60,256 nucleotides of DNA from the NCBI RefSeq assembly GCF_903679515.1, contig NZ_CAHOYM010000003.1:1-60256 (forward strand). Direction: 5' to 3'. Each line of letters starts with the position of its first letter. The first letter of the stretch is position 1. The position numbers and the translations under genes were made by a program. Below the pieces are notes generated by a model. That model was not told where the DNA came from. It ran no database searches and saw only the letters and a program-made list of their open reading frames with translations. Below, piece by piece: positions 1-23,506 of this stretch. This DNA is from Bartonella gabonensis. GTDB lineage: Bacteria > Pseudomonadota > Alphaproteobacteria > Rhizobiales > Rhizobiaceae.

Positions 1-81
1 TAATAAATGAAAATCTATAAGCTTATAAAAGTTTTAAATGATTACTTTCTTAAAGTTACTATAACATTCTTTAGATTTTGC

Positions 82-117
82 GCTCGCCAATTTTGGCGAA
101 CGTTAATTTGTTTCTTT
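82..117 (+). terminator. Possible terminator near the left edge
   Basis: The arms TCGCCAA (84-90) and TTGGCGA (93-99) form an inverted repeat, followed within about 15 bases by a T-rich stretch. It could end transcription of a plus-strand gene lying left of the window. The T tract is broken by other bases, so this is tentative. Confidence 0.35.
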
Positions 118-194
118 TTATGCGATAACAATCCAATCTTTAAAACAAGCTGTGATCTTTAAACGTATGGTATTGAAAATTTCAAAAGATTATT

Positions 195-445
195 ATGAAA
201 ACTTGTATTAGCAATAAAAATGCAGAAAACATCTCTAATGAAGAATTAATGATCTTTCTTTTTATTGCAAATACTTACATGTTATCAATCCTCTAACCAA
301 AGAAATCTATATGATCTCCCTAAAAAGCGCTGGTATAATCCCTGTCGTCTCTATTGATGGATGGAGTAAGATCATTAAGTTTAATTTTAAATTTGATGGT
401 ATAATCTTTCTAAATCCACAAAAAAACAGAGGGAGTACATCCTGA
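195..445 (+). pseudogene. Relic of a phage Bet/RecT-type single-strand annealing recombinase
   Basis: An ATG at 195 opens a frame reading ...NEELMIFLFIANTY. From 281 a different frame continues with INPLTKEIYM, then IIPVVSIDGWSKII and FDGIIF, and stops at 443-445. Laid end to end these match the N-terminal half of the lambda Bet/RecT-type annealing protein family (pattern LNPxTKEIYxxP...GIVPVVGVDGWSRII...FDGM). The frame change near 280, the loss of the C-terminal half and the double stop at 443-448 show it is dead. In phages this protein anneals single-stranded DNA during recombination. The family match is from memory of the motif. Confidence 0.7.
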
Positions 446-557
446 TGAAGATATGCAATTCTTTAGAAATATTCCATACCAAGCGATTGATAAGAAACAT
501 ATTATACTGGCATTGAATGAGTCAAAGAGACGCCAGCAATGGCTAGAAACTTTCTGA
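432..557 (+). pseudogene. C-terminal gene fragment of unknown origin
   Basis: A 41-codon open stretch ending in TGA at 555-557 reads VHPDEDMQFFRNIPYQAI... and ends ...SKRRQQWLETF. It has no start codon or ribosome site and begins in a different frame from the Bet relic just upstream. The composition looks like coding sequence, but I do not recognise the family. It may be the end of another phage gene joined to the recombinase relic by a deletion. Confidence 0.3.
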
Positions 558-584
558 AAGACCTAATCTTTTTAATTGTGCAAT

Positions 585-650
585 TATTTATGAGCACAGT
601 GTTATAAGTCTAAATGAAGAAATGCTGTCGTAAAAATAATATAATCATAA
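585..650 (-). repeat. Orphan copy of the hbp-type upstream leader
   Basis: This stretch aligns along its length with 1573-1640, the region just upstream of the first hbp-like gene. Shared pieces include a tttatga-cacartg block and the 19-base element at 625-643. In the two intact copies the gene lies to the left on the minus strand. Here nothing hbp-like lies to the left, only phage-type debris. It therefore looks like the surviving 5' flank of a deleted third hbp paralogue. Confidence 0.55.
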
Positions 651-684
651 AAAATAGAGGCTCCGTTTTTGACAGAGCCTCTGA
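648..684 (-). terminator. Rho-independent terminator of the first hbp-like gene
   Basis: The arms agaggctc (656-663) and gagcctct (675-682) form a perfect 8-bp stem. On the minus strand it is followed by a run of six T. It lies 40 bases past the stop codon at 724, the expected position for a factor-independent terminator. Confidence 0.8.
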
Positions 685-723
685 GAAATTTATTTTATGT
701 TCATCATTTTGTTTTTTACGAAA

Positions 724-1554
724 TTAGAATTTGTAAGCAACACCTACACGGAAGTCATTAACGCTGTACTGAAGTTCAGCTGTGTCTTTAAAGTATTTCT
801 TTTTACCGTAGTCTGAGAAACGGTATTCTGCACGCAACAGAACATTGTCTGTCAATGCGAAGTCAACACCAGCACCAAGAGTGTAACCAACAAGGGTCTT
901 TGTTTCATCATATACGTTACCAGAAGCAAAAACCTTATTAGCATTAGTAGCATCAATAGAAGATTTTTTAGAAGACTTTTTCACTTCAATTGCAGAAATG
1001 CCCTGCATTTGCGTATAAGCAACACCACCAGCGATATAAGGCACGATACGATCAGCAGCAAAACCAATGCGAACGCGTGTAGCACCAGACCACTTTTCTT
1101 TCAGAGTAACACTTTCAGTGTATTTATCTCCGTCTGCAACTGTTAGATTATCTTTCAGTTTGATTTTAGCACTATCAAGGATTTCATTAATCTTTGCAAC
1201 ACTATGATTGTTTCCTCCAACTTCTTTTGCAACGCCATCAACTGTGTCTTTTTTACCAACAAAAGAGACATCTGTATCCAAGCCGAAGATCACACCATTG
1301 CCGAGATCAACATTGTAACCTGTGTATAGGCCACCGATCATACCGGAAAGCTTAAAATCGTCTAAAAATTTGTCAGATCTTAATGAACGGCCACCAATCT
1401 GAGCACCAAGATAAAAACCTGTCCAAGAATAGGCAGGGGCTGCTGTGATAACTGCTGGGGCTGTTTCACGAGGGACGATAACATCAGCAGCTTGTGCCGC
1501 AGAAGCTGCAGCCATAGCGATAATAGAAGTTGTTACTAAAGATTTTATATTCAT
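724..1554 (-). CDS. Hbp/Omp25-like outer-membrane beta-barrel protein (hemin-binding family)
   Basis: The product is a 276-residue outer-membrane protein of the Omp25/Omp31-like family, known in Bartonella as hemin-binding proteins (Hbp). The start ATG at 1554 is preceded by AGGAG at good spacing. An upstream in-frame extension to 1653 lacks a signal sequence at its front and is rejected. A signal peptide of about 22 residues ends at AQA-A. After a proline-rich linker comes the family motif YSWTGFYLGAQIGG, and the protein ends with the barrel signature FRVGVAYKF, whose terminal Phe suits BAM-mediated insertion. The middle (about residues 105-175) is charged and variable, as expected of surface loops. 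A paralogue lies directly upstream. Heme binding is a family inference; no specific heme ligand is visible. Confidence 0.9.
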   Translation of the reverse strand: MNIKSLVTTSIIAMAAASAAQAADVIVPRETAPAVITAAPAYSWTGFYLGAQIGGRSLRSDKFLDDFKLSGMIGGLYTGYNVDLGNGVIFGLDTDVSFVGKKDTVDGVAKEVGGNNHSVAKINEILDSAKIKLKDNLTVADGDKYTESVTLKEKWSGATRVRIGFAADRIVPYIAGGVAYTQMQGISAIEVKKSSKKSSIDATNANKVFASGNVYDETKTLVGYTLGAGVDFALTDNVLLRAEYRFSDYGKKKYFKDTAELQYSVNDFRVGVAYKF

Positions 1555-1611
1555 AAACTTTGCTCCTAATTTATTTATGAACACAATGCTACAAGATTGC
1601 ACGGAGAAAAG

Positions 1612-1630
1612 CTGTAGTAAAAATGACACA
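1612..1630 (-). promoter_or_regulatory. Conserved 19-bp leader element upstream of the first hbp-like gene
   Basis: The element ctgtagtaaaaatgacaca lies 58-76 bases upstream of the start codon. It recurs at 2783-2801 with one change and at 625-643 in degenerate form. It is better conserved than the surrounding leader, suggesting a promoter or operator. In Bartonella the hbp genes are known to be controlled by iron and heme through Irr, so an Irr-type site is one possibility. I cannot confirm that from sequence alone. Confidence 0.45.
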
Positions 1631-1835
1631 ATCACAGGAAATAGGCAGCTCACCCAAGATAAAAGGACTTTATAGTTTCGTCTTGTACGAGAAACTACAA
1701 ACTATACATATAAATAACTTATTGATTTTAAATGTATTGTTTAATGATTTTTTGTTAATACACTCTTAATAACATTTTTTTACATCCACAATAAAATATA
1801 GGATGTGTGACAATATAGCAACACAAAATAATAGA

Positions 1836-1862
1836 GGCTCTATCAGGGATAGAGCCGCTTCG
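1836..1862 (-). terminator. Probable terminator of the second hbp-like gene
   Basis: The arms ggctctatc (1836-1844) and gatagagcc (1848-1856) form a perfect 9-bp stem. It lies 26 bases past the stop at 1882. On the minus strand the tail is T-rich (tctattatttt) but not a pure T run. The stem resembles the one after the first hbp-like gene, as expected of a tandem duplication. Confidence 0.65.
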
Positions 1863-1881
1863 TTATTTAACTGTTCATCTG

Positions 1882-2715
1882 TTAAAATTTGTAAGCAACA
1901 CCAACACGGAAATCATTGGTTTTGTAAGAAGTCTCATATTTATCATTTGAGAATTTCTTTTTACCAAAATCGGAGTAACGATATTCCGCACGGACAATAA
2001 TATTATTGGTCATTGCTAAATCAACACCAGCGCCAAGGGTGTAACCAATAAAGGTCTTTTTTTCATCAGTAAGAATACCAGAAGCTATGACTTTGTCTGA
2101 ATCTGCATCTGTTATTGAAATCGATGCTGTATCTTGAAGCTGTGTATAAGCAATACCGCCAGCAACATAAGGCATAATACGCTCAGCAGCAAAACCAATA
2201 CGCACACGTGTTGCTCCAAACCACTGTTGTTTAAAAGTGAAACTGTGTGTTTGTTTAGAATCAGGTTTAAGTACATTTTCACCAATATTAATTGAAGCGT
2301 CTTTTAACATCTTCTTAATATAATTGATGTGGTCTGCGGCAATGAGAAATGTTTCTCCTGTCTTCGTATCGCTTTTATCAGCCCACATGATATCTGTATC
2401 AACACCTAGAATAAGGCCATTGCCAAGATCAATATTGGAACCTGCGTAAAGACCACCCATGAAACCAGATAATTTAGGCAAAATATCTTTATTTACAGGA
2501 ATCTTTTGTCCTCTAGCAAGAATATCCATCTTCGTTTTACTAGAAAAACCACCAATCTGCCCACCAAGGTATAAACCTGTCCAAGAAAAAGTTGGTGCAA
2601 CAACAACGGGAGCAACAGGTGTTGGACTCGGGGGAACAATAACATCTGCTGCCTGCGCCGCTGAAACTGAAACAAAAGCGAAAGTAGAAGCTGTTATTAA
2701 CCATTTCATATTCAT
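1882..2715 (-). CDS. Hbp/Omp25-like outer-membrane beta-barrel protein, second paralogue
   Basis: The product is a 277-residue paralogue of the neighbouring protein with the same architecture. It has a signal peptide ending AQA-A, a proline- and valine-rich linker, the motif FSWTGLYLGGQIGG, barrel strands including WFGATRVRIGFAAER and YTLGAGVDLAM, and the terminal strand FRVGVAYKF. The ATG at 2715 is preceded by GGAGAG at good spacing. The pair agree closely in the strands and differ in the charged central loop (about residues 115-165). It has its own leader carrying the conserved 19-base element and its own terminator, so it is probably transcribed separately. Heme or hemin binding, or adhesion, is inferred from the family. 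Confidence 0.9.
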   Translation of the reverse strand: MNMKWLITASTFAFVSVSAAQAADVIVPPSPTPVAPVVVAPTFSWTGLYLGGQIGGFSSKTKMDILARGQKIPVNKDILPKLSGFMGGLYAGSNIDLGNGLILGVDTDIMWADKSDTKTGETFLIAADHINYIKKMLKDASINIGENVLKPDSKQTHSFTFKQQWFGATRVRIGFAAERIMPYVAGGIAYTQLQDTASISITDADSDKVIASGILTDEKKTFIGYTLGAGVDLAMTNNIIVRAEYRYSDFGKKKFSNDKYETSYKTNDFRVGVAYKF

Positions 2716-2782
2716 ATTTTCTCTCCATAGCTGAATATTTATTTGAACACGTCACTTCATATAGAGCCCTACCTTCAGATAT

Positions 2783-2801
2783 CTGTAGCAAAAATGACAC
2801 A
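2783..2801 (-). promoter_or_regulatory. Conserved 19-bp leader element upstream of the second hbp-like gene
   Basis: The element ctgtagcaaaaatgacaca lies 68-86 bases before the start codon and differs by one base from the copy at 1612-1630. Position and strand relative to the gene are the same in both. A promoter or regulator site is the simplest reading. Confidence 0.45.
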
Positions 2802-3872
2802 CTCATAAAAAAACAAAAGCCAATGTAACCGTTCTATTTAAATTTATACAAATAAATTTATACAAACAATGTTTTTAGCCTCTGCTTGATCAAATGCGTA
2901 TAGCTCTTTGGTTGTTTTTTTACTGTAAAGAATGTGTATTGCACATAAACAAAGTTTCGAATACTTCATGATTGCAAAAAGATCACGTTCAACTTACCTA
3001 CTCTTTGTTTTTACTTTAGGCACTTATTGTTTTTGAAAGATTGACCATTTTTTATCTTAACCTTATAGAAAATCTTTTTTAAAGCTTTAGCCTTCTTTGT
3101 AGGCGATCAATTTCATACTCTTTTATAACCTACATTGAAAAAAAACTCATGACAAACAACTGACATGATAAACATTGAAACTTATATAAAAACTCTCCCT
3201 AAAGCTGAAAAAATGAAAAATTTTCTGCAAGTTTTCAAACAAAACCTTGCTTTAAAATTCATGAATTTTGCAGAAAAGATATTTGATATTTTAAATAGAC
3301 AAATTAAAGAATATTTTATCTATAGTCGAAACACCCCAACAAAACTCAAAAGTTTAATATTCAAATAAAGCTTTGTTATCCTTCACCACAGGCTTACTCC
3401 TCGATTTTGATGGAGAAAACTTATCAGATTCTGTCTGCAAACAGCCCTGATTCTTGTCAAGCGGATTTATCTTGATTTACCGCCATGTGATTTACTTAAT
3501 TCAAAGCTTTATGGACCAAGCCCTACTCTTGATCCACCCCGTATCCTAAAAACACTTAAATAAATGAGCTCTATATACCTTATATAACCACACCTCAAAT
3601 GAGGGAATTTGCGACATAATATAATAGAGCAATCTAAAATCTACACATTATATAATTTCATGAAATTTGCAATAAACAATCGCCCATTACACAGTGTATT
3701 CTTTTACAGAAATCTCCCTGCCCCGACCTTTTCCGAACAGCACTATTCATAACTCCACGCATAATCATAACACCCTTAGAAAGCAAATAACGCCCCCTGT
3801 TTTTAAGTGATAAAAAATATCTTCTTTATTCAATACCCAAACATCCACCCTTTTATGCTGTTTTCTCACTTT
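2802..3872. other. Intergenic region with possible gene relics
   Basis: About 1.1 kb with no gene I can support. On the minus strand at about 2870-2945 a short open stretch contains ELYAFDQAEAKNIV without a start. On the plus strand, codons ending in TAA at about 3560 read ...LDLPPCDLLN and LYGPSPTLDPPRILKTLK. Just before that a different frame reads GLLLDFDGENLSDSV. These look like decayed coding sequence, perhaps phage, but none is identified. A 67-codon open frame at 3165-3368 is A/T-driven and unconvincing. Confidence 0.4.
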
Positions 3873-4202
3873 TTAATAACTCATTGGATTTCGTGAAAAT
3901 AGGTTTGGCCGTTTTCCTTTTCCTAGCCCTTTTTTAGGCTTTTGAAACTTTTTTTTACCAGAATGTGACACAGGTACTAACTTAGCTGCTGTTATGTATT
4001 GGCCGTTATTTTTGCAAGAAAGTTCCATTTGAACAACTTCAGATAAGATCTTGCTCAACCGTGCCCTAGAACAAAAATCTCTAGAAGGAACAACAGAAGA
4101 TATACCTTCTATGAACCTTTGAGAAGATAAAAAGCTCGCACCCTGTGCAAAAGAAATTGAAAAAAAAGTAGCAAAAGCTGTAATAAAATATTTTATGTTC
4201 AT
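3873..4202 (-). CDS. Small secreted basic protein, function unknown
   Basis: The product is 109 residues. The ATG at 4202 is preceded by GAGG at good spacing; a longer upstream frame to 4253 is rejected because the signal peptide starts here. The N-terminus MNIKYFITAFATFFSISFAQG is a clear signal peptide and begins like the nearby Hbp proteins (MNIK). The mature part has two cysteines (CSRARL and LSCKNN) that could form a disulfide, then a strongly basic tail with KKKFQKPKKGLGKGKR. There is no hbp barrel motif. It could be an exported small protein, or a gene that captured an hbp signal sequence. I do not recognise the family. Confidence 0.55.
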   Translation of the reverse strand: MNIKYFITAFATFFSISFAQGASFLSSQRFIEGISSVVPSRDFCSRARLSKILSEVVQMELSCKNNGQYITAAKLVPVSHSGKKKFQKPKKGLGKGKRPNLFSRNPMSY

Positions 4203-8540: not shown

Positions 8541-8806
8541 TACTCCTCTTTAATAATTATGCACTTTCCGGTCGTATAACTCATCAATTGATCTCTTTCC
8601 CGCTCTCCAAAAACGAAAATTCTTAACCCTATTTGGTCTATCAATAACCTTCACTTGACTTCATACTGATATGACTCACTTAACGAAAGGCTCTACGGTC
8701 AAGCCCTTTCTCGAATATTCATTCGCGTACTCTAAAAGTACTTGCCCTGTCAAGAAAACTTATCGACCTTAAATGACGTGTGTTTTACTTTTATAGCATA
8801 ACAGGA

Positions 8807-10054
8807 TTAAGCCCATTCACCCTTACGAAATACAGGAACTCTTACGCCATCTTGCATAATACCATCTATGTCAATTTCACCAGAGCCAATCATCCAATCA
8901 ATATGAATAACACTTTTATTACCACCACGTGCTGCAATCTCTTCTGATGTCAATGAGGCTCCCTCTAAAAAGCATTTGGAGTAACACTGCCCTAAAGCAA
9001 TATGACAGGCTGCATTTTCATCAAATAAGGTATTATAAAAAAGAAGCTCGCTCTTAGAAATTGGTGAAGAATGAGGGACAAGAGCAACTTCGCCTAATCG
9101 GCTTGCACCCTCATCACTTTGCAAAATCCGCTGAAAAACTGCCTCGCCTGTTGATGCATGGGCATCAACAATGCGCCCTGCTTCAAAACGCACTTCAATA
9201 TTATCAATCAGTGTTCCTTGATAGGAAAGGGGCTTTGTTGAACGAACAAAACCTTCAACCCTATGAGCATGAGGAGTCGTAAAAACCTCTTCTGTCGGAA
9301 TATTAGGATTGCAAACAACACCATTTTGAGCAACGGATGCACCTCCATGCCATTCATGATCATCTGCCAAACCAACTGTTAAATCAGTCCCTGGTCCTGT
9401 GAAGTGCAAAGCAGAAAAACGCTGCTCATTAAGCCAAGATGATAGTTTCCTCAAATTTTCATTATGAGCAATCCACGCATGCACTGGATCTTCTCCTGTC
9501 ACACGGGAAGCAGAAAAAATTGCATCAGCTAATTTTTTAATCGCCTCATTAAGCGGTAAAGAAGGAAACATTGCTTCAGCCCATCCCGCTGTTGGATAAG
9601 CAACAATCGACCAATTGATAGCAAAATTCGATATTTTTTTGAGAGCAGGTTGGTAAGCGAGCGAAGTCGCCTTATTTAACCGCGCAATCTTATCAAAATC
9701 TTGATTGGAAAGAAGCAAAGGATTATCATCAACAATCGCTAAACGTGCAGCCCCATTTTCAAAAGCCTTCGCCATTCCCTCATAGAGCCAAGAAGGGGCA
9801 CAATCAAAACTAGCCGTATGGGCATTTTCAAAACGTGTAAGCGATAACATATCATCACTAAAAAGTGGTGTAATGACACCAGCACCAACCTTATAAGCAT
9901 GATACGCAATACGTCGAACAAAAGGTAATGCTGAAACTGGAGCAGTCAAAACAAGATCCTGCCCCTCTTGTAAATTTAACCCTACTTTTACCGTAACTTC
10001 TGCAAGACGATTAAGCATTTCAGGTGAAATTGTCTCATGAATATCAAAATACAT
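8807..10054 (-). CDS. M29 family aminopeptidase
   Basis: The 415-residue protein matches the M29 (AmpS/aminopeptidase T, thermophilic aminopeptidase) family of cytosolic dimetal exopeptidases. The N-terminal domain shows VGLNLQEGQDLVLTAP and YHAYKVGAGVITP. The metal-binding half contains the Glu of NIPTEEVFTTP, then VEGFV and HSSPISKSELLFYNTLFDENAACH, ending with HIDWMIGSGEIDIDG. The length is typical. It appears to be a single gene, with 266 bases of apparently empty DNA to mutM downstream. Peptide turnover is the likely role; the natural substrate is unknown. Confidence 0.92.
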   Translation of the reverse strand: MYFDIHETISPEMLNRLAEVTVKVGLNLQEGQDLVLTAPVSALPFVRRIAYHAYKVGAGVITPLFSDDMLSLTRFENAHTASFDCAPSWLYEGMAKAFENGAARLAIVDDNPLLLSNQDFDKIARLNKATSLAYQPALKKISNFAINWSIVAYPTAGWAEAMFPSLPLNEAIKKLADAIFSASRVTGEDPVHAWIAHNENLRKLSSWLNEQRFSALHFTGPGTDLTVGLADDHEWHGGASVAQNGVVCNPNIPTEEVFTTPHAHRVEGFVRSTKPLSYQGTLIDNIEVRFEAGRIVDAHASTGEAVFQRILQSDEGASRLGEVALVPHSSPISKSELLFYNTLFDENAACHIALGQCYSKCFLEGASLTSEEIAARGGNKSVIHIDWMIGSGEIDIDGIMQDGVRVPVFRKGEWA

Positions 10055-10233
10055 TACCCATACCCTTCTTTAAATAAAATGCGTTCCTTACGCCACCATA
10101 TTCTAAATTGTTTTTCCAGGTCCTTTCAATATACTTTCTCTACGTCTATTTATACGCATCACTCTTACTAAAGAGCTCACTGAATTCATAAACCGCAATG
10201 GAGTGTAAAATCTTCTTTGGTCACACAAAAAAC

Positions 10234-11070
10234 TTACCAGTTTCTGTGTCGTTTTTCTAACATTGCAACAATTGCATTTAACTGATCTGATGAAGGCAAC
10301 GCCATACCTGTTTTATTTTCCTCTTTCTGAGCTAGATGTCTAGGCGCATAAGCTGGAATAGGAACTTTATCAAGCTGGACCATAGCAAAAGACGTAGGCT
10401 GTACCGTCTTGGACTGTGCTGCTGTTGTTGAAGGAGATGCATTTTTCTCTGCCTTTACTCCCTGACTTTCTAAACCTTTATCAATAAAGCTTGGCGCATA
10501 ATCAGAACGTTCCTGAGCAAAAGCATAAGCAACATTATAAGGGCGATTATCCGTAGGAACTTGAAGTGATCCATCACGGGATCGTTTTTCATAAAAAGCA
10601 TTACCTCCTGCAACATGAACATAGTGCATGTTTTTATAAGGGAAAGACAAACCTGCGGTATGAAAAAACTTAGCGTGTTTAACTTTCTTATCTCGTTCAC
10701 CCCGTAAAACAGCATCAGCAGCCTCTCTTACACGAGCAACAGATGCTTTCTCCGTCATGGGACGCGTTAAAACACCAGGAGCAAATTGCTTATATTGACC
10801 AACAACACCACAAATTGTCTTGGGATAGGCAGTTGAATTAACACGATTCATAACAACCGTTCCAACGGCAATCATTCCTTCACGACTTGAGCGATTTGAT
10901 TCAAAATACATCGCACGCATAAGACATTGGCGCTCTGTCAATGGATACGTAACTGTTTTTGTCTCCTTATTATTTACTTTTCCAGCATCTAAATGATTTG
11001 CAGCACACCCCACAACAACCAACGGTGCTACGCAACAGGTAACAAAAACATTCCAACGATTTTTTTTCAT
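10234..11070 (-). CDS. SleB-type cell wall hydrolase, predicted lipoprotein
   Basis: The 278-residue protein has an N-terminal lipoprotein signal (MKKNRWNVFV...VVVGC, lipid-modified Cys near residue 22). A Hydrolase_2/SleB-CwlJ domain follows (about residues 45-165), with the hallmarks LTERQCLMRAMYFES, AVGTVVMNRV, YPKTICGVV, QFAPG and AKFFHTAGL. The tail (about 175-278) is low-complexity. SleB-like enzymes are lytic transglycosylases or amidases acting on peptidoglycan. In non-sporulating alphaproteobacteria they are taken to remodel the wall. The start is uncertain: a GTG four codons upstream (11082) is possible, and the AGGA at 11086-11089 suits neither start well. Confidence 0.85.
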   Translation of the reverse strand: MKKNRWNVFVTCCVAPLVVVGCAANHLDAGKVNNKETKTVTYPLTERQCLMRAMYFESNRSSREGMIAVGTVVMNRVNSTAYPKTICGVVGQYKQFAPGVLTRPMTEKASVARVREAADAVLRGERDKKVKHAKFFHTAGLSFPYKNMHYVHVAGGNAFYEKRSRDGSLQVPTDNRPYNVAYAFAQERSDYAPSFIDKGLESQGVKAEKNASPSTTAAQSKTVQPTSFAMVQLDKVPIPAYAPRHLAQKEENKTGMALPSSDQLNAIVAMLEKRHRNW

Positions 11071-11082
11071 CTTAGGCAACAC

Positions 11083-11472
11083 ATTCCTATAATCTCTGAG
11101 CTATTCAAATTTTGAAATGAACTTTAAATGTATCTCTCAATAAAGTACACCGCTAATTGTTACCACTCAGTAAAATTTTAATACAAATGGTAATCAAAAA
11201 CTATCTATGCGAAATAAAAAATAAAATATTCTTAATTTATAGATCAATATCGTCGCTCCTCATGGCACAATATGGACCTCTAGAATCCTACGCCTTTCAA
11301 TCGCAATAAAATAATATGAACACTCATTCTCCATACTAAAAGATTGGGCGAAAAATATTTGGATATTAAAACTCTTTGCATCAATATTGAAAAAATAATA
11401 CAGATATCCCCCTTAATATAAATTATATAAATTTTAATAAAATGATCAGAAAGCCCCCCATACAGCCATAAT
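11083..11472. other. Intergenic region
   Basis: About 390 bases of AT-rich DNA upstream of the SleB-like gene. I see no gene, strong hairpin or recognisable regulatory site. Confidence 0.4.
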
Positions 11473-11718
11473 ATGGATGATGATATCATTCAATATATAA
11501 ATATGTCACATCAAGAGTTAACAATCTATCCTGTTCGCCTGAAAAAACTCTTTGTTGTTTCTTTGTACTTTTTCATAATATGGTCATTATATTCTTTTTA
11601 TATTCTTTCTAGAGCTTTGTATTGTAAGAAAATGCTCAATGTATCTACAAGCTTACTTTTAGATATCTCAGAAAAATTTAATCTCTTTTCTTCTCATCTA
11701 TACCAACTTTATACGTAA
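11473..11718 (+). CDS. Doubtful small membrane-protein ORF
   Basis: An 81-codon frame on the strand opposite to phoU, overlapping the phoU 3' end by 41 bases. It has one clear hydrophobic segment (LFVVSLYFFIIWSLYSFYIL, about residues 26-45) preceded by basic residues, as a real inner-membrane protein might. No ribosome-binding site is evident before the ATG and I recognise no family. It may be a decayed fragment of a larger membrane gene or chance in AT-rich DNA. Confidence 0.2.
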   Translation: MDDDIIQYINMSHQELTIYPVRLKKLFVVSLYFFIIWSLYSFYILSRALYCKKMLNVSTSLLLDISEKFNLFSSHLYQLYT

Positions 11719-12400
11719 GGTCATCACGAGGACGATCAGAAGACATATGATAACCCGTTATGATATAATGCAACATTTCAGCAATATTGGTAACATGATC
11801 ACCAATTCGTTCAATATTCTTTAAACAAAACAGTAAATGCGTACAAACCGTAATATTGCGCATATCTTCCATCATATATGTCAAAAGTTCACGAAAAAGA
11901 GAAGTATACAAAGCATCAATCTTCTCATCACGCTCACGCACAGCGTCAACACGCTCTAATCGGCGACTCGTATAAGCATCTAAAACTTCTTTTAATTGAT
12001 TGAGAGCTAGAGCTGTAATTGTTTCAAGCCCATGATAAAAAGACGCAGCTTGACGTATTTCTGAAAGGGCAACTGTTCTCTTAGCAATGTTTTTGGCCAT
12101 ATCCCCAATCCGCTCAAGATCAGAAGAAATACGAATGGCTCCTATAATTTCACGCAAATCTACAGCCATCGGTTGACGCTTGCAAATAATAGCAACCGCT
12201 TTTTCATCAATATCACGTTCTGCTTCATCTAAAAACACATCATCGGCAATCACTGCCGTTGCAAGTTGAAGATCACTACAGACAACTGATGCAACAGAAC
12301 GTTCAATCATTCTTTCCGCATGGCACCCCATTTCTGTAATCCTTGCTTTTAGATATTTTAGTTCCGCATCATAAGAACGAACAGTATGGTTCATAGACAT
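11678..12400 (-). CDS. phoU: Phosphate transport system regulator PhoU
   Basis: The 240-residue all-helical protein has the two PhoU repeats. Each carries a metal-binding E/DxxxD-type motif, seen in RISSDLERIGDMAKNIAKR (about residues 91-109) and LKNIERIGDHVTNIAEM (about 188-204). PhoU links the Pst transporter to the PhoR/PhoB two-component system and restrains phosphate uptake. It is the last gene of the pst cluster, 21 bases after pstB. GAGGAAA lies upstream of the ATG; a second ATG two codons later is possible. No phoB or phoR gene adjoins it here. Confidence 0.95.
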   Translation of the reverse strand: MSMNHTVRSYDAELKYLKARITEMGCHAERMIERSVASVVCSDLQLATAVIADDVFLDEAERDIDEKAVAIICKRQPMAVDLREIIGAIRISSDLERIGDMAKNIAKRTVALSEIRQAASFYHGLETITALALNQLKEVLDAYTSRRLERVDAVRERDEKIDALYTSLFRELLTYMMEDMRNITVCTHLLFCLKNIERIGDHVTNIAEMLHYIITGYHMSSDRPRDDLTYKVGIDEKKRD

Positions 12401-23403: not shown

Positions 23404-23506
23404 GGGAGGTTGGTGGTGGACGAACTACTCGCCAACTGGGTCAGGTCTGGAAAGAAGCAGCCCCAACGAGTTCTGGTACGGGTCATCGTGCCGGCCTCCT
23501 ATTTTT
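23404..23506 (+). ncRNA. ffs: Signal recognition particle RNA (4.5S, bacterial small type)
   Basis: The conserved SRP domain IV core is present as GGTCAGGTCTGGAAAGAAGC followed by AGCCCCAACGA, containing the asymmetric loop and GGAA-type tetraloop that bind Ffh. The 5' end GGGAGGTTGG pairs with the 3' end CCGGCCTCC, closing the hairpin at about 100 nt. A short T run follows. A 77-codon reading frame across it is an artefact. Placement just upstream of dnaX is a conserved alphaproteobacterial arrangement. Confidence 0.93.

What the first reader, a model, noticed from the sequence alone, without database searches (positions are those of the whole stretch)
585..2801. Three related leaders with a conserved 19-bp element, one without its gene
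The element ctgtagYaaaaatgacaca occurs upstream of both hbp-like genes (1612-1630 and 2783-2801) at similar distances. A degenerate copy lies at 625-643, inside a longer stretch (585-650) that aligns with the first leader. The third copy has no hbp gene to its left. This points to a former three-gene hbp array in which one gene was deleted, and to a shared promoter or operator. In Bartonella, hbp genes respond to iron and heme through Irr; whether this element is that site is inference.
Basis: partly seen in the sequence, partly recalled or inferred. Interest (0 to 1): 0.55.

Follow-up and report, generated by a model that had tools for sequence, protein, structure and literature searches.

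The report
Stranded promoter from a lost heme-porin gene
Next to two genes for heme-binding outer-membrane proteins in a Bartonella genome lies the decayed promoter of a third such gene, now fused to scraps of an old virus, and the control element that the living promoters share seems to be older and more widespread than its heme-specific description suggests.

Summary
The 19-mer sits upstream of both hbp genes, and a third, gene-less leader (584-657) matches the first leader at 56 of 74 positions (best of 2000 shuffles: 40). The element is very probably the published Bartonella "H-box", though I could not read the primary paper. (1) 12 of 16 relatives' loci carry three or more hbp units ahead of the hbpC-like gene, so a three-gene origin is not established. 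(2) The third leader is not the stump of a recent plain deletion: in 5 of 5 genomes that have it, it breaks off before the ribosome-binding site and joins the inside of a phage integrase gene, followed by a phage Bet piece, probably one old event. (3) It is decaying. (4) A further unit (X4) was apparently lost here by recombination between paralogs. (5) The element is not confined to Bartonella: similar sites precede 11 of 21 Omp25/31-type genes picked by protein similarity in other genera of the family (0.21 expected from shuffles), 10 of the 11 at 55-76 bp from the start codon. Which protein binds it there is untested.

The parts
724..1554 (-). hbp1, heme-binding protein (Omp25/31-type beta-barrel)
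   Evidence: Pfam OMP_b-brl 2.5e-14; 75-98% DNA identity to hbp1 of G017, G055, G049 in 12 of 14 coding 60-bp blocks, 61-74% in the other two
1882..2715 (-). hbp2, heme-binding protein
   Evidence: Pfam OMP_b-brl 6.1e-18; 85-90% protein identity to counterparts in G017, G049, G055, G025
1612..1630 (-). 19-bp H-box-like element of hbp1
   Evidence: exact match; conserved stretch about 1606-1645 by the profile of 60 leaders
2783..2801 (-). 19-bp H-box-like element of hbp2
   Evidence: exact match; conserved stretch about 2777-2816 by the profile of 60 leaders
584..657 (-). stranded hbp leader without ribosome-binding site, start codon or gene
   Evidence: 56 of 74 identical to hbp1 leader; leader profile positions 4-75 of 96, E 1.8e-4
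625..643 (-). degenerate copy of the element in the stranded leader
   Evidence: 4 mismatches; 15.2 bits against a median of 31.4 for intact sites
397..582 (+). fragment of a phage tyrosine integrase, frame-broken (about residues 84-147 of 345)
   Evidence: tblastn to the intact integrase of own contig C51, three pieces over 397-565; 566-582 only by alignment with orthologs; the C51 protein is Pfam Phage_integrase 5.1e-20
171..415 (+). fragment of a phage Bet/RecT-type annealing protein (residues 17-97 of 275), frame-broken
   Evidence: tblastn to own C51 protein, two pieces, which is Pfam RecT 1.3e-24; PHROG 252 on the orthologous ORF of L023, E 1.8e-10
1..186 (.). repeat 100% identical to contig C27:20751-20936; the contig ends here
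656..682 (-). terminator behind hbp1, of the type found behind X4 in relatives
   Evidence: stem of 11 pairs then T run; the last 60-bp block is 75-81% to the X4 flank and 62-65% to the hbp1 flank of G017, G055, G049
1836..1856 (-). terminator-like stem behind hbp2
   Evidence: stem of 9 pairs

Best explanation
The two living leaders share a promoter element of about 40 bp (core TGTRTCATTTTTRCTACAG on the coding strand, 57-67 bp before the start codon) that is very probably the Irr-bound H-box of Bartonella hbp genes. The third leader is a relic. In an ancestor of this species and at least four Bartonella relatives, a further hbp unit of the array lost its ribosome-binding site, start codon and gene when its leader became joined to the inside of a phage integrase gene, presumably after a prophage had integrated beside or in it. 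The phage DNA shrank to integrase and Bet scraps; the stranded leader lost constraint and now drives no hbp gene. Separately, this lineage lost the units that stand between hbp1 and the relic in three of the four relatives. Shown: the homology, the shared breakpoint, the decay, the X4-like 3' flank of hbp1. Inferred: prophage integration as the cause, crossing-over between paralogs, Irr as the binder.
For: Leader 3 matches the leader profile only up to position 74 or 75 of 96 in 5 of 5 genomes (this one, L023/G055, L025/G017, L022/G049, L097/G025). In the four relatives the integrase match (last residue 147 or 148) adjoins that point or overlaps it by 2-3 bp; the window aligns with them across the joint. 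Own contig C51 holds Bet and integrase in the same order, intact. By the listed matches, leader plus scraps is colinear in 4 of the other 70 Bartonella genomes searched. Mean pairwise identity over the five genomes is 87.0% for leader 3 (with 12 nt past the joint) against 95.3, 94.2 and 98.2% for the hbp1, hbp2 and hbpC leaders. All five share CTA to CGA in the box, where T is invariant in 60 of 60 intact leaders. Element-gene link: 52 of 59 sites with up to 2 mismatches in 41 loci have an hbp start 53-76 bp downstream, or 190 bp for one site counted twice.
Against: The profile E-values of leader 3 are weak by themselves in three orthologs (5, 2.4 and 0.13); their identity rests on alignment with the window and L025. 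Between the window and the other four, leader 3 (85-88%) is less diverged than the phage scraps beside it (73-79%), which a plain relic would not predict; among the other four it is more diverged in 5 of 6 pairs. Gene conversion could explain this but was not tested. No intact copy of the lost gene was found behind this leader in any of the five genomes, so its identity as an hbp gene rests on the leader alone. No integration site was seen.
Confidence: 0.8

Rival explanations
1. One reading: a recent simple deletion removed the third of three hbp genes in this lineage, leaving a leader that may still work.
For: Leader 3 follows the terminator of hbp1 directly, as a further unit would; 4 of 16 relatives' loci also have only two units ahead of the hbpC-like gene.
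Against: The same breakpoint is shared by four other genomes and phage DNA is fused to it.
Confidence: 0.05
2. Leader 3 is kept as a working element, for example a decoy site for the regulator or the promoter of a small or antisense RNA across the phage scraps.
For: Its matrix score is still the third best in the window, and between the window and the relatives leader 3 is better conserved than the scraps.
Against: Near-invariant bases of the box are changed, the T run has indels in 3 of 5 genomes so that the box no longer scores there, and overall divergence is well above that of living leaders.
Confidence: 0.1
3. The element is not a heme-specific Irr operator but an ancestral promoter or activator site of the Omp25/Omp31 family in Bartonella and related genera, read by Irr, by an OmpR-type regulator of the ChvI/BvrR/BatR line, or by RNA polymerase itself. 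This concerns the living leaders and is compatible with the relic story.
For: 7 of 20 near-matches outside Bartonella stand 52-75 bp before an Omp25/31-type gene. Among 21 such genes chosen by protein alone, 11 exceed the 99% shuffle level (0.21 expected), against 2 of 111 control ORF upstreams (nested starts counted apart); 10 of the 11 sites lie 55-76 bp from ATG. No matrix match at hutA of this genome.
Against: 10 of 21 genes do not pass the 99% level; the 21 genes come from about 11 genomes and include paralogs, so they are not independent. Outside Bartonella the pattern is rare: 18 of 243 genomes, against 8 of 247 with the backwards control. The ChvI motifs in print (GCC-N8-GCC; TTGC-N3-GCAA) are not in the element by inspection. 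Irr binding to an H-box is reported for Bartonella.
Confidence: 0.7

Closest known systems
H-box of Bartonella quintana hbp promoters (Battisti et al. 2007, seen only as a citation in PMC3799009)
   Same: Shared element upstream of hbp genes; a review says Irr binds it
   Different: Published sequence not readable here; the element found here spans about 40 bp, is absent from two of six hbp genes of this genome, and recurs before Omp25/31-type genes outside Bartonella
hbp tandem arrays (three tandem genes in B. bacilliformis, PMC4102455, passages)
   Same: Tandem paralogs, each with its own leader
   Different: Two to four units ahead of the hbpC-like gene in 16 relatives' loci; here a relic leader fused to phage DNA
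BvrR boxes upstream of Brucella omp25 (PMC10538546, abstract and passages)
   Same: Regulator sites in the upstream region of an Omp25-family gene
   Different: Box sequences (for example TGTCA-CCCC-TGTCA) share at most a short TGTCA with the element; no formal comparison was run

Membership tests
hbp / Omp25-Omp31-type outer membrane proteins | beta-barrel domain above the curated cut-off | tested here: met
   both genes above the OMP_b-brl cut-off
H-box (hbp promoter element) | conserved element upstream of hbp genes across Bartonella | tested here: met
   70 of 71 genomes have at least one site with up to 2 mismatches, backwards control 2 of 71; 52 of 59 sites in 41 loci have an hbp start downstream
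H-box (hbp promoter element) | identity with the published sequence | not testable with these tools
   primary papers not held
H-box (hbp promoter element) | binding by Irr | not testable with these tools
   review statements only
H-box (hbp promoter element) | also present at hut promoters (stated in PMC4102455) | tested here: inconclusive
   no match in the hutA locus L113 (best 0.29 bits); other hut promoters may lie outside that locus
Irr box / ICE | TTTAGAA-N3-TTCTAAA-like dyad (recalled, from no call) | tested here: not met
   best matches in 80 leaders (duplicates included) are no better than in shuffles
ChvI/BvrR binding site | GCC-N8-GCC or TTGC-N3-GCAA | tested here: not met
   motifs read in passages of PMC9731502; absent from the element consensus by inspection
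functional hbp leader (for 584-657) | ribosome-binding site and start codon | tested here: not met
   profile match ends at 75 of 96
functional hbp leader (for 584-657) | intact core CTACAG | tested here: not met
   CGACAG or CGACAA in 5 of 5 genomes

The most novel reading that the evidence does not exclude
The Bartonella H-box is not a genus-specific heme/Irr invention but an inherited promoter element of the Omp25/Omp31 outer-membrane family in Bartonella and related genera (general form TGTNNC-N6-RYTACA), with a regulator older than the heme role. Bartonella amplified the genes together with it, and phage insertions and crossovers trim the arrays.
Probability: 0.6. Interest if true: 0.6.

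Novelty: new member of a known kind. Interest (0 to 1): 0.42.

Why it matters
The stranded leader is a fossil of how hbp arrays shrink: a promoter without its gene, with phage scraps still attached, shared by five genomes. The wider point is testable: if the H-box predates Bartonella, then accounts of heme- and iron-specific control of hbp genes should be re-examined against the regulators of the Omp25/31 family in related bacteria.

Tried and rejected
Nucleotide search of 1-720 in phage and plasmid records: no match. Rfam on the window at gathering level: only the small SRP RNA at 23405-23502. Sigma-70 scan of 1-3000: 9 sites against 11.7 in shuffles, uninformative. A -10-like hexamer 18-21 bp behind the element: match quality no better than shuffles, and the spacing count is biased by my tie-break, so dropped. 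An own pattern for the terminator: 0 matches. Idea that leader 3 belongs to the phage: rejected, because integrase and Bet pieces occur in many genomes without the leader. Idea that C28 or C15 carry the missing array gene: not favoured, since apparent counterparts of both lie outside the array in relatives (counterparts judged by similar identity to hbp2, not by direct comparison). Element as ICE or ChvI site: not supported. A dyad in the element is partial only and not claimed.

Rows dropped: for the test outside Bartonella, 9 of 30 genes (5 fetched by pattern, 2 with a site of up to 2 mismatches, 1 wrong start, 1 duplicate), leaving 21; its shuffles keep single-base content only, and its 111 control upstreams count nested start codons apart. 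For the leader profile, the C17 and C28 leaders and identical copies were dropped, leaving 61; the 60 leaders also exclude those with more than 4 mismatches. The 59 sites include two sites counted twice (L067/L103, L068/L109); 12 of the 41 loci were picked by me, mostly because they looked unusual. The match lists were cut by the tool, and only 8 candidates per genome were scored. One search was limited to E up to 1e-20.

Changed after the recount: array lengths are now given as counts, the joint as adjoining or overlapping by 2-3 bp, the G025 mosaic is described more narrowly, the backwards control is told, and odds for the best and the novel reading are slightly lower.

Full report
What is there. 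The window starts at the end of a contig (G000:C3) of a Bartonella genome of 1.97 Mb in 121 contigs (genus by its relatives). Two minus-strand genes, hbp1 (724-1554) and hbp2 (1882-2715), encode Omp25/31-type beta-barrels. It is exact upstream of both genes and occurs twice more in this genome with up to 3 mismatches: at C41:10296 before an hbpC-like gene and at C15:45726 before another hbp gene. Of the six hbp genes that I find in the genome four have it; those on C17 and C28 do not.

The element. In 60 distinct intact leaders the conserved stretch is longer than the 19-mer: from about 15 bases before it to about 6 after it, with several positions invariant in 60 of 60. In the genus, 70 of 71 genomes have at least one site with up to 2 mismatches; the backwards control pattern hits 2 of 71. 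In 41 loci, 52 of 59 such sites have an hbp start downstream, at 53-76 bp, or at 190 bp for one site counted twice. Of the other seven, one is cut off by the locus end and lies before X4 of G017. Reviews say that Irr binds an H-box in hbp promoters (PMC3799009, passages) and that hut promoters carry it (PMC4102455, passages). The primary papers were not held, so equating the two is an inference from position, genes and genus. At the hutA locus of this genome I find no such site.

The third leader. Stretch 584-657 matches the hbp1 leader at 56 of 74 positions without gaps; 2000 shuffles reach at most 40. A profile of 61 intact leaders finds it too (positions 4-75 of 96, E 1.8e-4), and it stops just before the ribosome-binding site. 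The DNA to its left is phage-derived: on the plus strand 171-415 encodes pieces of a Bet/RecT-type annealing protein and 397-565 pieces of a tyrosine integrase, both in broken frames. On the own contig C51 the two genes stand intact, in the same order, about 1.5 kb apart (Pfam RecT 1.3e-24 and Phage_integrase 5.1e-20). The Bet reading is backed by PHROG 252 on the orthologous ORF of L023 (E 1.8e-10).

Age of the event. Searching 71 Bartonella genomes with 1-660, the listed matches are colinear over leader and scraps in four others: G055, G017, G049 and G025. By equal contig lengths G055, G017 and G049 are the records Bartonella sp. B1099, B. elizabethae F9251 and Bartonella sp. MM73XJBT.G. In all five the leader ends at profile position 74 or 75. 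In the four relatives the integrase match ends at residue 147 or 148, adjoining that point or overlapping it by 2-3 bp, and the window aligns with them across the joint. One ancestral junction is the simplest reading. No integration site is visible: the joint lies inside the integrase gene, so a deletion after or during integration is inferred, not shown.

Decay. Mean pairwise identity over the five genomes is 87.0% for leader 3 (with 12 nt past the joint), against 95.3 (hbp1), 94.2 (hbp2) and 98.2% (hbpC) for living leaders. All five share a CTA to CGA change at a position invariant in 60 living leaders, and 3 of 5 have indels in the T run, so that the box no longer scores there. One result does not fit simply: between the window and the others leader 3 is less diverged (85-88%) than the scraps (73-79%), while among the other four it is more diverged in 5 of 6 pairs.

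The array. In the 16 relatives' loci, 12 have three or four hbp units of about full length ahead of the hbpC-like gene and 4 have two; some units are frame-broken. In G055, G017 and G049 the order is hbp2, hbp1, a C-terminal remnant (X3), X4, leader 3 and, further on, hbpC; a C-terminal remnant stands before hbpC in G055 and G049. In the window hbp1 is followed at once by leader 3, and the last 60-bp block behind it resembles the X4 flank (75-81%) more than the hbp1 flank (62-65%). In G025 the second gene is hbp1-like in its first 120 bases and X4-like at 241-360 and in its 3' flank, undecided between. Separate crossovers between paralogs would explain both; this is inferred. Own contig C41 has an hbp C-terminal remnant and the hbpC-like gene beside a different phage integrase fragment; whether C41 adjoins C3 cannot be told.

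Beyond Bartonella. In 247 genomes of the family, 243 of them not Bartonella, the pattern with up to 2 mismatches occurs at 20 sites in 18 non-Bartonella genomes; the backwards control hits 8 of the 247. I fetched all 20: 7 stand 52-75 bp before an Omp25/31-type gene. As these were chosen by pattern, I also took Omp25/31-type genes by protein similarity. After dropping 9 of 30 genes for bias or error, 11 of 21 exceed the 99% shuffle level (0.21 expected) and 8 the 99.9% level (0.02 expected); 2 of 111 other ORF upstreams pass the 99% level. Of the 11, 10 lie 55-76 bp before the ATG; over all 21 the best site does so in 15. The 21 genes come from about 11 genomes and include paralogs, so they are not independent. 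The element is therefore probably older than Bartonella and belongs to this protein family's promoters. Who reads it is open: ICE-like dyads are not enriched in the leaders (pattern recalled), and the ChvI motifs printed in PMC9731502 (passages) are not in it. The BvrR boxes of Brucella omp25 (PMC10538546, abstract and passages) show that another regulator acts on this family in a relative.

What is in print. Two reviews in the library mention the H-box in Bartonella; the third paper that holds both words is on an unrelated subject (search listing). A search for a motif shared by omp25/omp31 promoters and Bartonella listed two papers, PMC10538546 and PMC5780451; the passages read of the first do not describe this element and the second was not read. 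This says nothing about papers outside the library.

Verdict. The third leader is an ordinary relic of some age.

Noticed in passing
window 1-186; C27:20751-20936: Exact 186-bp repeat at the contig end; similar sequence (window 1-192) matches many places in other Bartonella genomes. It probably broke the assembly.
   Followed up: partly
L015 (C41) 10403-12164: hbp C-terminal remnant with stops upstream of the hbpC-like gene, next to another phage integrase fragment (Pfam Phage_integrase 2.7e-10) and a 66-aa ORF without a Pfam family.
   Followed up: partly
L015 (C41) 8572-10239: hbpC-like gene of 556 aa with about 300 residues of low-complexity sequence between the two halves that match hbp.
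   Followed up: no
window 3876-4202: Small secreted-looking protein, no Pfam family, matched at 46-82% identity near the hbp array in 16 of 16 relatives' loci.
   Followed up: no
L097 (G025) 3213-4046: Mosaic hbp gene: 5' end hbp1-like, X4-like further on and in the 3' flank.
   Followed up: partly
L110 (G018:C2, near 548806): Element with 2 mismatches ahead of a 108-aa secreted-looking ORF that is not an hbp by tblastn.
   Followed up: no
L121, L123: Near-matches to the element about 160 bp before similar genes in two species of genus g74; the L121 gene is Pfam OEP, outer membrane efflux protein.
   Followed up: partly
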